NCBI GenBank assembly: GCA_030826765.1 | Contig: JAUUDM010000026.1 | Coordinates: 52,687-116,686, forward strand | DNA length: 64,000 bases | Direction: 5' to 3' | From: Nautiliales bacterium | GTDB lineage: Bacteria; Campylobacterota; Campylobacteria; Campylobacterales; JAADDX01 | In this document: piece after piece, positions 24,790 to 57,690 of the stretch | Layout of the letters: the number at the start of each line of letters is the position of its first letter | Position numbering within the stretch: position 1 is the first letter of the stretch | Notes under the pieces: generated by a model | What the model was told of the DNA's origin: nothing | The model's database searches: none | What the model saw: only the letters and a program-made list of their open reading frames with translations | Position numbers and translations under genes: made by a program

Positions 24790-25575
24790 TTAATTTCCTT
24801 TTATAATTATTCCTCTTTTAAAATTTTCTGGTGAATATATATCCGTAATTTTTATATATTCACAGGCCGGAGGTATTTGTAAAACTGTAAAGTTCATAAT
24901 CGTATTTTTTCTAAATACATCAATAAGATTCATATCTTTATCATAAAACCAAACTGATGGATGCCAACTATCTAAACGAGATGTTTTGATAGTTAATTTT
25001 GAAAAATTATTACTTTTTATCCAATATTCTCCATTTGGATTTACAAAACTTTGATTTTTATTTGTTAAATCTTTTATTTCTTTGATAAATCCATTAGAAC
25101 AATCAATTTTATAAGAAAATATATCTTCATTTCTAGAAATATCTAAAATTTTACAACCTCTTGAAGTTAATTCATTTATAAGTGATACAGGATCAATAAA
25201 ATGTTCACTTTTCATTTCCAAAGTTACATTATAAGTACTATTTTCTTTAGATATTTCAATGGGATAAAAATAATAATATCCAAGGTTAGTCAAACTATTA
25301 TTTAAAATCTTTTGCTCTAAAATAGGATTACCATTTTTAAATTCAAATTTTGTATCAATAATTTTAGCTTTATTAAAAAACAGATCAATTAAACCATTAT
25401 TTTTTAATTTTTTTACAATTTCAATAATATTATATTCATTATTAGGAAAGATTTTATCAATTAATTTTTGATATTTTTGATAATTTTCTTCTCCCATTAT
25501 AGTTTCTATTTTAGAAGTATTATTTATAGCAAATAGATTAATTACTAATAAAAATAGTAAAAATAGTTTTTTCAT
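24790..25575 (-). CDS. Secreted protein of unknown function (Cj0151c-like)
   Basis: A 261-residue protein with a clear N-terminal signal peptide ([16 protein letters not shown]). The mature part is rich in Asn, Ile and Lys and appears mixed alpha/beta, with two Cys (in [10 protein letters not shown] and YKIDCSNG) that may form a periplasmic disulfide, and a third in [12 protein letters not shown] recognise no catalytic motif. It has about six N-X-S/T sites but none with an acidic residue at -2, unlike its neighbour. It overlaps the preceding RodZ-like gene by four bases and ends one base before the aminotransferase start, so it belongs to that operon. Position matches C. jejuni Cj0151c from memory. 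Confidence 0.75.
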
Positions 25576-26378
25576 CTAAAATTCTCTACTCTTTTTTTAG
25601 TTATATTTAATTCTCTATTTTGTAAAATAACTCTCGTAATTTTTTTTGAATTAGGAAAAACAGTATTACCTTTATAATAAATTTTTATCATACCATGTCC
25701 AAATTTAATAAACATTTTTTTACTTGCATTTAATTCGACAGGATTACTTGTCAAATATTCTTTACTTTTATTTAAATCTAAATAATAAACTTTAAACCAA
25801 ACTAATTTAAGTGGTGTTATAGTAAGTTTTGTATCGATATATTTTTTGGAAATATTTTTCTCAATATTAGTTAAAGTAGTTGTATTGTGTTCTACAATAT
25901 TTCTAATATTGGTTTCATCACTTACTTGTATTTTACTATCTTCATCTGTTACATTACTATCATTTTTTTCTATTATATTTTCAACTTTTAAAGAATCTAA
26001 TTTTGGATTACTGTTCTCTATTTTTGCTTTTTCATTTAGCTTCATATAATAAATCAATCCAATAATTACTACAAGTAATAAAAATACAAATAAATAACCT
26101 TTATAATTTTTATTATTTTGATCTAACTCTTCTACAAGTTGTTGTTTTCCTGTTTTTTTAGAATCATCAGAAATAAAATAATAACTATTTGCTTTTTCTT
26201 CCAAATCACTAAAATCAATATCTTTAAATTCAGATTTTAAAATTTTTAGAAAACCTTTAAATCTTAATTTATCTATTTTATCAAATTTTTCTTCTAGTAA
26301 TTTTTGTAAAAACACCGGAGAAATAGAAGTTTTTTTAGTAATTTCTTCTATAGAATATTTTTTTAATAACTCATCCAT
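25572..26378 (-). CDS. RodZ-like membrane protein with helix-turn-helix and sequon-rich periplasmic domain
   Basis: A 268-residue single-pass protein. Residues 1-60 form a small helical domain like the Cro/RodZ helix-turn-helix (SIEEITKKTSISPVFLQKLLEEK), 95-112 is a membrane helix, and 113-268 should lie in the periplasm with a beta-rich end. The periplasmic part has seven N-X-S/T sites (Asn139, 142, 165, 175, 203, 217, 258), and every one carries Asp or Glu at -2, the bacterial PglB-type sequon. The topology resembles RodZ, but I cannot claim the cell-shape role. It lies between rlmB and a secreted protein, matching the position of C. jejuni Cj0152c. Its start overlaps the rlmB end by eight bases. 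Confidence 0.78.
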   Translation of the reverse strand: MDELLKKYSIEEITKKTSISPVFLQKLLEEKFDKIDKLRFKGFLKILKSEFKDIDFSDLEEKANSYYFISDDSKKTGKQQLVEELDQNNKNYKGYLFVFLLLVVIIGLIYYMKLNEKAKIENSNPKLDSLKVENIIEKNDSNVTDEDSKIQVSDETNIRNIVEHNTTTLTNIEKNISKKYIDTKLTITPLKLVWFKVYYLDLNKSKEYLTSNPVELNASKKMFIKFGHGMIKIYYKGNTVFPNSKKITRVILQNRELNITKKRVENFR

Positions 26379-53981: not shown

Positions 53982-54769
53982 TTAATAGTATTAATTGCTT
54001 CATTTAAATCATCAATATTTAAATTATATTTTTCAGCAATTTCTATACCTTTAGCTATATTTTCATCACTTAAAGGATTAAATAAATCAACTGCCGTGTA
54101 AGCTACTGCCAATGGAGCTGAATATTCAATATTATCTTCAGCATTTTCTAGATTATTAGTAAATTTAATAGCATTTACAAGTGTATTATCAAATTTCCAA
54201 TAACTAAACATTTCAGCTGTTACTTCTAATGTATCAGTATCTAAATATTCTCTCTCAAGCTCTGTTCTATCTTCACTTGCTAGTCTTTCTCTAAATTCTT
54301 CTGCTAATCCTTCTGCAATAAGAATAGAAGAAATAATAACCGCTCCAATTTCAAGTAAAAATGACGCTGTTGAAAGAATATCAAGTTTACTTCTATCTCT
54401 TTTATACCAATTAACAACTAAAGCATTTTGGAGTTGTGAAACTGATACAAATTTATTCTCACTTACACCATAAGCACTTAAATCTATTTTCATAGAACTT
54501 TTAACAGCTGATGAAACTGCAAAACCTTTAACTGTACTCATTCCAAACAGACTAACTGCTTGATCAACAGTTTTAATTTGACGACTAAATCCGTATAATG
54601 GAGAATTTGCTGCTTTTAATAAATTTGCTGTTAACATTGGATCTTCTTTTACTACTTTTATCAAATCTCCTATACTACCATCTGGGTCTGATACTATTTT
54701 TTGAATTTCCATTACACTTTTTGGAAGTGGTGGAAGAGATTTAATTTTTTTTAATATATTTTCATTCAT
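53978..54769 (-). CDS. HDOD-domain signalling protein
   Basis: A 263-residue protein made almost entirely of an HDOD domain, a catalytically inactive relative of HD phosphohydrolases. Key segments are IKSLPPLPKSVMEIQKIVSDPDGSIGDL near residue 10, VVKEDPMLTANLLKAANSPLYGFSRQIKTVDQAVSLFG near 40-78, and the EREYLDTDTLEVTAEMF region near 170. HDOD proteins regulate c-di-GMP signalling, motility or chemotaxis by protein contacts; the partner here is unknown. It overlaps rnr and the MshN-like gene by four bases each, so it sits at the end of the pilus-assembly operon. Confidence 0.85.
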   Translation of the reverse strand: MNENILKKIKSLPPLPKSVMEIQKIVSDPDGSIGDLIKVVKEDPMLTANLLKAANSPLYGFSRQIKTVDQAVSLFGMSTVKGFAVSSAVKSSMKIDLSAYGVSENKFVSVSQLQNALVVNWYKRDRSKLDILSTASFLLEIGAVIISSILIAEGLAEEFRERLASEDRTELEREYLDTDTLEVTAEMFSYWKFDNTLVNAIKFTNNLENAEDNIEYSAPLAVAYTAVDLFNPLSDENIAKGIEIAEKYNLNIDDLNEAINTIK

Positions 54770-55554
54770 TTAATACTCCTTACATATGTTTCTATTTGTT
54801 GATTTGAACCATAAATTTTCAGATAAGAATCTAATAATTGTTTAGCTTCTTTATTTTTTCCTAATTTTACCAAACTTTTAGAATAAAGTAACCAACTTTG
54901 TTTATCTTTTGGATTTATATTATTAGCTTTTTTAGACCATTCTATACAATTATCATATTTTTTTTGATTATAATATATACTTGCTATTTTTATAGCTGTT
55001 TCATATTCTGGAAATAATTTATAATTATTTAATAATTCTTTTAATGAATATTTACTTTTACTAACTTTAATTACTATTTTAGGTTCTTTAATTTTTAAAG
55101 GCTTTGTTATATTATGAGCTGTATATGACATTATAGAATTTTTATTTTTTTCCGACACTTTTATTGATATAATATCAACATCAGGAATCATAGGATTTAA
55201 ACTTAATTTACTTATTTTATTACTCTTTTTAGTAAGATTTATATCAGATTTTGTTACATTTTTTTCTACTTTTTTTGTAATATTCATTTCAGATTTAACT
55301 ATGCTATTATGTTTTATTTTAGAAAGATTGTGTTCAGGCTTTATTATATTTACATTTTTTTTAGAAATATTTATTTCAGATTTAATATTATTTGTTATAT
55401 GCTTTTTATCTGTATAAATTTTGTTATTAACATAATAAAAAAAATAGACTATAATAATTAAAATAATTAAAATAAATAAAATAAATAAATAAATAAAATA
55501 TTTTTTCCTTTTTCTTTTATAATAAAGTTTTTCTAATTGGTCATAATTATACAT
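54766..55554 (-). CDS. MshN-like TPR membrane protein with a sequon-rich linker
   Basis: A 262-residue single-pass protein. It has a basic N-terminus (KLYYKRKRKKYF), a membrane helix at about 20-42, a long Lys/Asn/Ser-rich linker (about 45-160) and a C-terminal TPR region (about 165-255, with KYDNCIEWSKKANNINPKDKQSWLLYSKSLVKLGKNKEA). The order matches MshN of MSHA-type pilus clusters, and it overlaps the MshM-like gene by eight bases. Between residues 58 and 110 are five degenerate copies of K-S-E-X-N-X-S/T-K-K. Every N-X-S/T site in the linker core (Asn62, 76, 91, 99, 106) has Asp or Glu at -2. This fits multiple PglB-type N-glycans. Direct sequence similarity to MshN is weak. Confidence 0.72.
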   Translation of the reverse strand: MYNYDQLEKLYYKRKRKKYFIYLFILFILIILIIIVYFFYYVNNKIYTDKKHITNNIKSEINISKKNVNIIKPEHNLSKIKHNSIVKSEMNITKKVEKNVTKSDINLTKKSNKISKLSLNPMIPDVDIISIKVSEKNKNSIMSYTAHNITKPLKIKEPKIVIKVSKSKYSLKELLNNYKLFPEYETAIKIASIYYNQKKYDNCIEWSKKANNINPKDKQSWLLYSKSLVKLGKNKEAKQLLDSYLKIYGSNQQIETYVRSIK

Positions 55555-56281
55555 GAATCTCCTTTATAAATATATTAGCCATTTCTATATATTTATTATC
55601 TATATTGCTTTTATTAACTTTAGTAGGATCCTTTTTATAAAAATAATTTATAATATCAAAAGTTCTATAAATAAGCTGATTAATTTCTCTTAAATTACCA
55701 TGTGTTAATTTATAAATAAGTTTATAATTTGATTTTGTAAACATTCTTTCTATTTGTTCAAATCCATGTTGATGTAGTTTAGAAGAAATAAAAAATATCA
55801 TATCATCATATGAACAAGGAGTAATATTCAAAATATAACTAATTCTTGAACTAAAATGTTTTTTTGTAAATAATTTTTTTGCTTCTTCCTCATGTGTTGC
55901 TAAAATTATTGTATAATTACCATTATCTGCACACATTCTTATAGTTTCAATTTTTTCCAAACTAAGTGTTTGAGCTTCATCTATAAATATAACTGTATAT
56001 TGTTGATTATTTGGTATCTTTAATAAATTATTTAAAGTTTCTTCCTCTTCTATAGGATTAGAAATAAAGTACAATTTAGCATCTATATCTTTTTCTTGTA
56101 AAGTAGTATATACTTTTTGCATTAAAAAAGTTTTTCCACTACCTGCTTCTCCATATAAAAGAATCATTTTTTCTTTTTCAGATACAGCATACATCATATC
56201 TATCTCTAATTTTTTAGATAAAGGTATATAAAGTGATATATCAACTCTATCTCTAAAAATATCTTTTGCTTTATTAAACAT
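55547..56281 (-). CDS. ExeA/MshM-like AAA ATPase
   Basis: A 244-residue ATPase of the GspA/ExeA family, which helps insert or assemble secretins. It has LPLSKKLEIDMMYAVSEKEKMILLYGEAGSGKTFLMQKV with Walker A near residue 40, Walker B VIFIDEAQTLSLEKIE near 92, sensor 1 IILATHEEEAKKLF near 122 and a C-terminal helical lid ending near KEIHV. No peptidoglycan-binding domain follows, which makes it the short, MshM-like form. It lies between the secretin and MshN-like genes, the expected position in MSHA clusters. Overlaps the MshN-like gene by eight bases. Confidence 0.83.
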   Translation of the reverse strand: MFNKAKDIFRDRVDISLYIPLSKKLEIDMMYAVSEKEKMILLYGEAGSGKTFLMQKVYTTLQEKDIDAKLYFISNPIEEEETLNNLLKIPNNQQYTVIFIDEAQTLSLEKIETIRMCADNGNYTIILATHEEEAKKLFTKKHFSSRISYILNITPCSYDDMIFFISSKLHQHGFEQIERMFTKSNYKLIYKLTHGNLREINQLIYRTFDIINYFYKKDPTKVNKSNIDNKYIEMANIFIKEIHV

Positions 56282-56283
56282 TT

Positions 56284-57690
56284 TTAATATCCTAAATCCT
56301 TAATAGTTATTTTTTTATTTTCTTTAACAATATGTGGTGTTACCACAAATACTAATTCTACTTTATCAGAAATTTGTGTTTTTGAAGAAAACAAATATTT
56401 AACGACTGGTATTTCTTTTAATACAGGAACTCCATTTTCTTGTAATGAATTTTGACTTGTTATAAGTCCTCCCAATACTAATGTATCTCCATCCTTAATC
56501 CTAACAACCGTACTCATTTTATTTTCACTTGTATCTGGTGGTAAATCTTTTCTATTAGGATTATTTAATTGTGTTCTATCTCTAAAAGATGAAACAGTAG
56601 GATTAATTCTTAATATAATATTACCACTTTCACTTATTTCTGGTGTTATATCCAATAATATACCAATAAATTCACTTTTATTAGTATATTCAGCTGGTTG
56701 TGTATTACCAGCTTGATCTACATATGAAGCTTTTATCAAAGAGTTATAATTAATTGTATCTCCAACACTAATTATCGCTTTTTGATTATTCAGCGCTACT
56801 ATTTTTGGATTTGATACTGAATTTACATTTCCTTGAGTAGCTAAAAAATTTAAAAGACCTGAAACATTAAATAAAGATTTACTAAATATTGAGCTACTAC
56901 CTACTATATTTGCAGAACGTAAAGGAGTACTTTCAGGAGAGTCTGTAGAACCTAAACTTATATTTAGATTAGACCAGTTAATTCCTGTTTGTTTTCCTTT
57001 TTTCAAATGAACTTCATAAATTCTAACATCTATCATGATTTGTTTATGTAATCTTGTATTTAATTTATTTATATAACTTTGAATTTTTAATAACTGCTTT
57101 TTAGTAGCTGTTACAGTTACTAACCCTGCATTTTTATCTATAATAGGAAGAGATGCTTTATATTCACTATCAGAATTTAAAATATTATTTAAATTTTCTG
57201 CAAGAGTAGACCAAAAATCAAATTTATATTCAGAATTTACTGAATTTTCATCACTTGAACTACTTGATGTAGTCGAATTACTTGAATCACTTGAGCCTGA
57301 TGAAGAAGCAGAAAAATTAGCATTACCACTTCTTGTAGATGGAATATAATCTATTATAAAAGTTTTTGTTTTAATATATGAAATATGTAATATATTATGT
57401 TTTATATTATAAAAAAAGTTATTATTAGTAATTAATAAATCTAAAATTTGTAAAAAACTATAATTTTTTACACGAATTCCACTAACTTTTATTGTATTAA
57501 GTTTTGATTTAGCTAAAAAATCATCATATACTATATTTATATTACAACTATTTAATGAAATTTCTTTTAATATAGAAATTAAAGATATTTTTTCATTATT
57601 AGGTACTGAAAAAGTAAATAATTTAGACCCACAAATTTTACCCCAACTTATAATAGTTAACAAAATAAATACTATAAAATATTTTTTCAT
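56284..57690 (-). CDS. Type IV pilus/MSHA-type secretin (MshL-like)
   Basis: A 468-residue outer-membrane secretin. It has a signal peptide (1-17), a small N-terminal domain (about 35-110) of the STN/N0 type, a Ser-rich low-complexity loop (about residues 125-150), a short N1-like domain (about 165-215, VTVTATKKQLLKIQSYINKLN) and the secretin core (about 220-460) with VSNPKIVALNNQKAIISVGD near 292 and VVRIKDGDTLVLGGLITSQ near 398. It ends near VVTPHIV. It should form the exit channel for a pilus or secreted substrate. Overlaps the 140-residue gene by four bases, in MSHA gene order. Confidence 0.88.
   Translation of the reverse strand: MKKYFIVFILLTIISWGKICGSKLFTFSVPNNEKISLISILKEISLNSCNINIVYDDFLAKSKLNTIKVSGIRVKNYSFLQILDLLITNNNFFYNIKHNILHISYIKTKTFIIDYIPSTRSGNANFSASSSGSSDSSNSTTSSSSSDENSVNSEYKFDFWSTLAENLNNILNSDSEYKASLPIIDKNAGLVTVTATKKQLLKIQSYINKLNTRLHKQIMIDVRIYEVHLKKGKQTGINWSNLNISLGSTDSPESTPLRSANIVGSSSIFSKSLFNVSGLLNFLATQGNVNSVSNPKIVALNNQKAIISVGDTINYNSLIKASYVDQAGNTQPAEYTNKSEFIGILLDITPEISESGNIILRINPTVSSFRDRTQLNNPNRKDLPPDTSENKMSTVVRIKDGDTLVLGGLITSQNSLQENGVPVLKEIPVVKYLFSSKTQISDKVELVFVVTPHIVKENKKITIKDLGY

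What the first reader, a model, noticed from the sequence alone, without database searches (positions are those of the whole stretch)
25599..25970. Seven of seven N-X-S/T sites in the RodZ-like protein are PglB-type sequons
After its membrane helix the 268-residue protein has seven N-X-S/T sites (Asn139, 142, 165, 175, 203, 217, 258). Every one has Asp or Glu at -2. The adjacent secreted protein (24790-25575) has about six N-X-S/T sites and none with an acid at -2, so the pattern is not just base composition. Two physically separate genes showing the same complete rule strongly suggests the organism N-glycosylates periplasmic domains.
Basis: partly seen in the sequence, partly recalled or inferred. 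Interest (0 to 1): 0.75.

Follow-up and report, generated by a model that had tools for sequence, protein, structure and literature searches.

The report
N-glycosylation sites in RodZ-like membrane protein
In this vent-type bacterium related to Campylobacter, the outside part of a RodZ-like membrane protein carries seven sites that all obey the rule of the bacterial N-glycosylation enzyme PglB; the genome has that enzyme, and such sites abound in relatives that have it but are few in finished genomes that lack it, so the protein is very probably sugar-coated by a known type of system.

Summary
The protein at 25572-26378(-) has seven N-X-S/T sites, all after its membrane helix and all with Asp/Glu at -2 (0 of 20,000 shuffles reach this). 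The genome has one PglB, matching C. lari PglB over its full length (E about 1e-102) with the catalytic residues and Arg331 kept, in a locus with PglC-, PglF- and PglK-like genes. In orthologues from genomes with PglB, 279 of 371 sites carry an acid at -2, against 20 expected. In finished genomes it is 102/137 with PglB and 4/20 without (mostly Helicobacter). In a 391-kb sample of the window's genome, exported proteins have 45 such sites (16 expected) and cytoplasmic proteins 50 (67 expected), but the excess sits in about three proteins. The glycosylation reading is well supported; occupancy is untested. The second gene with the pattern is 5 of 6, not complete. The system is of a known kind. 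Less familiar: the C. jejuni positional equivalent, Cj0152c, was reported essential, and RodZ was reported absent from helical epsilonproteobacteria. Some draft genomes keep the sites without a detectable PglB, possibly assembly gaps.

The parts
25572..26378 (-). RodZ-like bitopic membrane protein, 268 aa; positional equivalent of Cj0152c
   Evidence: ORF; HTH_25 in 24 of 34 aligned relatives; conserved position upstream of the aminotransferase in relatives
26160..26375 (-). N-terminal helical HTH_25-like domain, residues 2-73, cytoplasmic by inference
   Evidence: AlphaFold2 model pLDDT about 95; PDB match 3fym E=3.5e-4 to profile A3; HTH_25 E=0.01 for this member, 1.1e-7 best in family
26013..26105 (-). 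transmembrane helix, residues 92-122
   Evidence: hydropathy; helix in the model
25830..26012 (-). low-confidence (probably flexible) linker, residues 123-183, with sites Asn139, 142, 165, 175
   Evidence: pLDDT about 45-55 through most of it
25599..25829 (-). C-terminal all-beta domain, residues 184-260, with sites Asn203, 217, 258
   Evidence: model pLDDT about 85-96; not recognised by the RodZ_C model
25956..25970 (-). sequon EKNDS, Asn139
25947..25961 (-). sequon DSNVT, Asn142
25878..25892 (-). sequon EHNTT, Asn165
25848..25862 (-). sequon EKNIS, Asn175
25764..25778 (-). sequon DLNKS, Asn203; recurs as DTNK[ST] in Nautiliaceae relatives
25722..25736 (-). sequon ELNAS, Asn217; recurs as ELN[TSA][ST] in several families
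25599..25613 (-). sequon ELNIT, Asn258
24790..25575 (-). adjacent secreted protein, positional equivalent of Cj0151c; eight N-X-S/T, none with acid at -2 (internal contrast)
54766..55554 (-). second sequon-rich gene: TPR membrane protein in an MshL secretin operon; 5 of 6 N-X-S/T have D/E at -2

Best explanation
The seven sites are acceptor sequons of this bacterium's own PglB. Shown: a PglB-type oligosaccharyltransferase gene lies in a glycan locus elsewhere in the genome; the protein's sites all follow D/E-X-N-X-S/T; the pattern is kept across the order where PglB is present and is weak in finished genomes where it is absent. Inferred: the RodZ-like protein is inserted N-in, PglB transfers a lipid-linked glycan to the periplasmic Asn residues, four in a flexible linker and three at turns or edges of the beta domain, and selection has kept multiple sites while individual ones move. 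The glycan probably differs from the C. jejuni heptasaccharide because the locus carries rhamnose and galactofuranose genes (inference). What the glycans do for this protein, perhaps protecting or stiffening the linker, is not shown.
For: Seven of seven sites, 0 of 20,000 shuffles. One STT3/PglB in the genome, full-length match to C. lari PglB E about 1e-102, with R331, E319, the D-T-D pair, WWDYG and MxxI equivalents present, all invariant in 16 PglBs of the order. Neighbouring PglF-, PglC-, aminotransferase and PglK-like genes, glycosyltransferases, Glf, RmlBDCA-type genes. Orthologues in PglB+ genomes: 279 acidic and 92 non-acidic sites against 20.3 and 135.9 expected from shuffles. Acid is 74% at -2 against 14% background, while -3 and -4 are 7%; Pro is 1% at -1 and +1 against 3.5%. 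Controls in the same proteins: cytoplasmic part 3/39, Q-X-S/T 8/104. Finished genomes: PglB+ 102/137, PglB- 4/20, p=4e-6, with similar non-acidic density. Helicobacter family: PglB+ 13/20, PglB- 4/24, p=0.002. Exported against cytoplasmic proteins in the window's genome.
Against: No glycoproteomic data. Several draft genomes (for example G040, G055, G022, G127, G017) have sequon-rich orthologues but no PglB found by three searches; three other genomes first scored negative hold partial PglB genes, so assembly loss is likely but not proven for the rest. The PglB- finished genomes are essentially one Helicobacter group plus one other genome, so independent losses are few. Outside about three proteins, the excess in exported proteins of this genome is weak (19 against 13.7 expected). 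A conserved Arg331 does not by itself enforce the -2 rule (PMC4894442). No statement of occupancy for Cj0152c was found in the held library.
Confidence: 0.9

Rival explanations
1. The pattern is an accident of base composition and low complexity: an AT-rich genome with Asn-, Lys-, Asp/Glu- and Ser/Thr-rich disordered linkers produces such sites freely.
For: G+C is 26%; four of the seven sites lie in a low-confidence linker.
Against: Shuffles that keep composition give 0.32 acidic sites, never seven in 20,000. The excess is specific to -2, to Asn rather than Gln, to the periplasmic side, and tracks PglB presence in finished genomes. The beta domain, not only the linker, shows it (52 of 74 sites).
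Confidence: 0.02
2. The acid at -2 is kept for a protein-intrinsic reason (a repeated binding or structural motif), and the PglB correlation reflects relatedness.
For: PglB- finished genomes are mostly one Helicobacter group; some draft genomes without detectable PglB keep the sites.
Against: Most sites are not at fixed alignment positions; number and place vary freely. The preference includes avoidance of Pro at -1 and +1, as known for PglB. Unrelated exported proteins of the same genome (TPR protein 5/6, lipoprotein 14/27) show it too. PglB+ Helicobacter differ from PglB- Helicobacter.
Confidence: 0.04
3. The sites are remnants: they were acceptors in ancestors, but in this organism the locus makes a different polymer or the sites are hardly occupied.
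For: The locus around PglB has no clear PglA/PglH/PglJ set and carries rhamnose, Glf and capsule-type genes; occupancy is untested.
Against: PglB is intact with all residues checked; a PglK-like flippase and a PglC-like transferase are nearby; this member has 7 of 7, so no decay is visible, whereas PglB- Helicobacter have few acidic sites.
Confidence: 0.04

Closest known systems
Campylobacter jejuni Pgl N-glycosylation (PglB, acceptor sequon D/E-X-N-X-S/T)
   Same: PglB over its full length with the same catalytic and -2 recognition residues; the same acceptor rule, including Pro avoidance; PglF-, PglC- and PglK-like genes in the locus
   Different: Glycan genes differ (rhamnose, galactofuranose, capsule-type genes), so the glycan probably differs; NCBIfam PglB score 413 is far below that model's cut-off of 1300, a distant member
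PglB systems of deep-sea vent Campylobacterota (Sulfurovum, Nitratiruptor; Nakagawa 2007, Mills 2016, cited in PMC7313396; the Mills paper was not held)
   Same: Same kind of organism and enzyme; relatives are Nautiliaceae, Nitratiruptor and Sulfurovum genomes
   Different: Here the acceptor side is examined through one conserved protein family
Cj0152c of C. jejuni (with Cj0151c)
   Same: Same position between an RNA methyltransferase and a Cj0151c-like secreted protein (C. jejuni gene order from memory; its record was not held)
   Different: Reported essential in C. jejuni by TraDIS and immunogenic (PMC10077673); whether its glycosylation is proven was not verifiable here
RodZ (E. coli, S. 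aureus, Streptococcus)
   Same: HTH_25-like cytoplasmic domain, one membrane helix, linker, C-terminal beta domain; PDB 3fym matched by profile; NCBIfam streptococcal RodZ model matches 10 of 34 relatives weakly
   Different: C-terminal domain not recognised by RodZ_C and no significant PDB fold match; RodZ is described as absent from helical epsilonproteobacteria (PMC3310789)

Membership tests
Acceptor protein of a PglB-type N-glycosylation system | N-X-S/T with D/E at -2, no Pro at -1/+1 | tested here: met
   7 of 7; family profile
Acceptor protein of a PglB-type N-glycosylation system | Sites on the periplasmic side | tested here: met
   All seven after the single membrane helix; cytoplasmic parts of orthologues 3/39. 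Topology itself is predicted
Acceptor protein of a PglB-type N-glycosylation system | Glycan attached to the Asn residues | not testable with these tools
   Needs glycoproteomics
PglB oligosaccharyltransferase | STT3 family, full length | tested here: met
   PF02516 98.8 bits, cut-off 24.5; C. lari PglB over 9-711
PglB oligosaccharyltransferase | WWDYG, acidic metal-site residues, E319, MxxI, R331 equivalents | tested here: met
PglB oligosaccharyltransferase | NCBIfam PglB equivalog score | tested here: not met
   412.9 bits against a cut-off of 1300: homologous over the full length but outside the narrow group the model names; filed here as a PglB-type enzyme, not as the C. jejuni equivalog
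Pgl locus | PglF, PglC, PglK-type genes beside pglB | tested here: met
   the PglK-model match is 570 bits, below its cut-off of 1000
RodZ | Cytoplasmic HTH_25 domain | tested here: met
   Family level: 24 of 34 members, best 1.1e-7; this member alone only E=0.01; 3fym E=3.5e-4
RodZ | Periplasmic RodZ_C domain | tested here: not met
   No listed hit at the orthologue positions in 120 genomes; 1 of 34 members at 0.0018; Foldseek PDB nothing at E<=0.001
RodZ | Binding to MreB and role in elongation | not testable with these tools
   Needs experiment

The most novel reading that the evidence does not exclude
The Cj0152c family is the overlooked, strongly diverged RodZ of Campylobacterota, and multi-site N-glycosylation of its periplasmic part matters for its role in cell-wall elongation, so that one conserved target could help explain why loss of pglB disturbs cell morphology.
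Probability: 0.15. Interest if true: 0.65.

Novelty: new member of a known kind. Interest (0 to 1): 0.38.

Why it matters
It shows that acceptor-site evolution can serve as a genomic footprint of an oligosaccharyltransferase: one exported protein holds many such sites where PglB is present and few in finished genomes where it is absent. It also names a conserved envelope protein, reportedly essential in C. jejuni, as a probable order-wide glycosylation target, which makes the open question of why Campylobacterota glycosylate their proteins testable on one protein.

Tried and rejected
A collection search with the RodZ-like protein alone found nothing, and alignment A1 had no stretch conserved enough; the conserved aminotransferase next door worked as an anchor. 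A first topology classification missed lipoproteins and was redone. The simple comparison of all PglB+ and PglB- genomes did not separate them (270/357 against 82/116), because many 'negative' genomes are drafts; I replaced it by finished genomes and the Helicobacter contrast. That choice was made after seeing the first result and should be read so. PglB searches with one protein and with an alignment did not resolve the remaining drafts; one search had no positive control. That the C-terminal domain is RodZ_C was not supported. Literature searches for Cj0152c as a glycoprotein found none in the held library.

Full report
Observation. The ORF 25572-26378(-), 268 aa, has seven N-X-S/T sites, all after the membrane helix and all with D/E at -2. 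The neighbour 24790-25575(-) has eight and none acidic. A composition-keeping shuffle of the periplasmic part expects 0.32 acidic sites; none of 20,000 shuffles reached seven. The second gene with the pattern, 54766-55554(-), is 5 of 6, so the rule is not complete there.

Where it lies. The window is part of contig C13 of a 1.51-Mb draft genome in 47 contigs, with 26% G+C in the window. The best named relatives of the neighbouring aminotransferase are a Campylobacterota draft genome (93% identity), then Nautiliaceae (81-84%), Nitratiruptor (about 73-75%) and Sulfurovum-type genomes. The gene order RsmI-like, RNA methyltransferase, RodZ-like, secreted protein, aminotransferase matches Cj0154c to Cj0150c of C. 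jejuni as I remember it; the C. jejuni record was not held.

The enzyme. The genome has one STT3-family protein. It aligns over residues 9-711 with C. lari PglB at E about 1e-102, and the alignment places R319, E307, D148/D150, WWDYG and MxxI opposite R331, E319, D154/D156, WWDYG and the MI motif (residue roles from established PglB work). All of these are invariant in 16 PglBs of the order. R331 is linked to the -2 rule but is not sufficient for it (PMC4894442). In the same cluster lie PglF-like, aminotransferase, PglC-like, glycosyltransferase, Glf, Wzx-type, RmlBDCA-type and PglK-like genes. The glycan is unknown.

The window's genome. In 391 kb of sampled sequence, exported segments (57 proteins) have 45 acidic sequons against 16.1 expected, z=7.4; cytoplasmic proteins (239) have 50 against 67.3. 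Without the two window genes it is 33 against 15.2; without a further lipoprotein, L013:2651-4681 with 14 acidic of 27, it is 19 against 13.7, which is not significant. So the excess sits in a limited set of heavily sequoned proteins. Topology was predicted with simple rules.

Orthologues. Of 249 genomes of the order, 209 have a recognisable orthologue and 191 an STT3. In the 84 genomes whose orthologue I read first, the 62 PglB+ genomes have 270 of 357 acidic. In the same proteins the cytoplasmic part has 3 of 39 and Q-X-S/T 8 of 104. With the Helicobacter additions the PglB+ total is 279 acidic and 92 non-acidic, against 20.3 and 135.9 from shuffles. The acid excess is strongest by far at -2 (74% against 14%), with a mild rise at +4 (26%) that adjoining sequons may explain, and Pro is depleted at -1 and +1. 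Both linker (168/225) and beta domain (52/74) show it.

Presence and absence. All genomes without a PglB hit gave 82 of 116, hardly different. Many of these are drafts, and three genomes first scored negative hold partial PglB genes. Restricting to genomes of at most about ten contigs gives 102/137 in 25 PglB+ genomes and 4/20 in 8 PglB- genomes, p=4e-6, with similar non-acidic density. In the Helicobacter family it is 13/20 against 4/24, p=0.002 (one genome counted there as negative, G211, has a marginal STT3 match and no sites). This agrees with the published absence of pgl genes in most Helicobacter (PMC6025236). The restriction was chosen after the first result, and the finished negatives are nearly all one Helicobacter group, so this supports rather than proves. 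Sequence counts are not independent of relatedness.

Structure. An AlphaFold2 model from the window protein and 33 relatives gives a confident helical N-terminal domain (2-73), a membrane helix (92-122), a low-confidence stretch (about 125-180) and a confident beta domain (184-260). Sites 139, 142, 165 and 175 fall in the low-confidence stretch; 203, 217 and 258 lie at turns or strand ends. No PDB fold match is significant. HTH_25 is met at family level, with 3fym as a weak PDB match; RodZ_C is not. So it has RodZ-like architecture, and membership is open. PMC3310789 states that helical epsilonproteobacteria typically lack RodZ. PMC10077673 lists Cj0151c and Cj0152c as essential in C. jejuni. 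Loss of N-glycosylation in C. jejuni is reported to alter cell morphology (PMC6478998); any link to this protein is speculation.

Verdict. The system is of a known kind and known in related vent bacteria (PMC7313396, citing Nakagawa 2007 and Mills 2016). What is added is a sequon-rich, conserved RodZ-like target whose sites follow the enzyme's rule across the order.

Noticed in passing
L013:2651-4681 (contig C6 of the window's genome): Predicted lipoprotein of 676 aa with 27 N-X-S/T sites, 14 with an acid at -2, and no Pfam family; the most sequon-rich protein of the sample.
   Followed up: partly
54766-57690: Genes for an MshL-type secretin, an ATPase and a TPR membrane protein in a row; the TPR protein has 5 of 6 acidic sequons, and its best matches in the order 31 of 75 in all (Q control 2 of 37), a mixed set that may include paralogues.
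   Followed up: partly
Genomes G040, G055, G022, G037, G127, G017: Draft genomes with RodZ-like proteins carrying acidic sequons but no PglB detected in three searches: assembly gap, or another oligosaccharyltransferase.
   Followed up: partly
Helicobacter-family genomes G085, G098, G164, G219, G234, G211: The RodZ-like match contains in-frame stops or is split into two pieces, so the gene may be altered or decaying in this largely PglB- group.
   Followed up: no
G000:C24:16345-16443 and equivalents in other genomes of the order: A weak half-match to RodZ_C (model positions about 2-36) recurs in a protein of about 740 aa; it is not the RodZ-like gene.
   Followed up: no
Genomes G001, G012, G018, G136 and others: Some genomes carry two or three STT3-family matches, not only the group with two PglBs described for H. 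pullorum.
   Followed up: no
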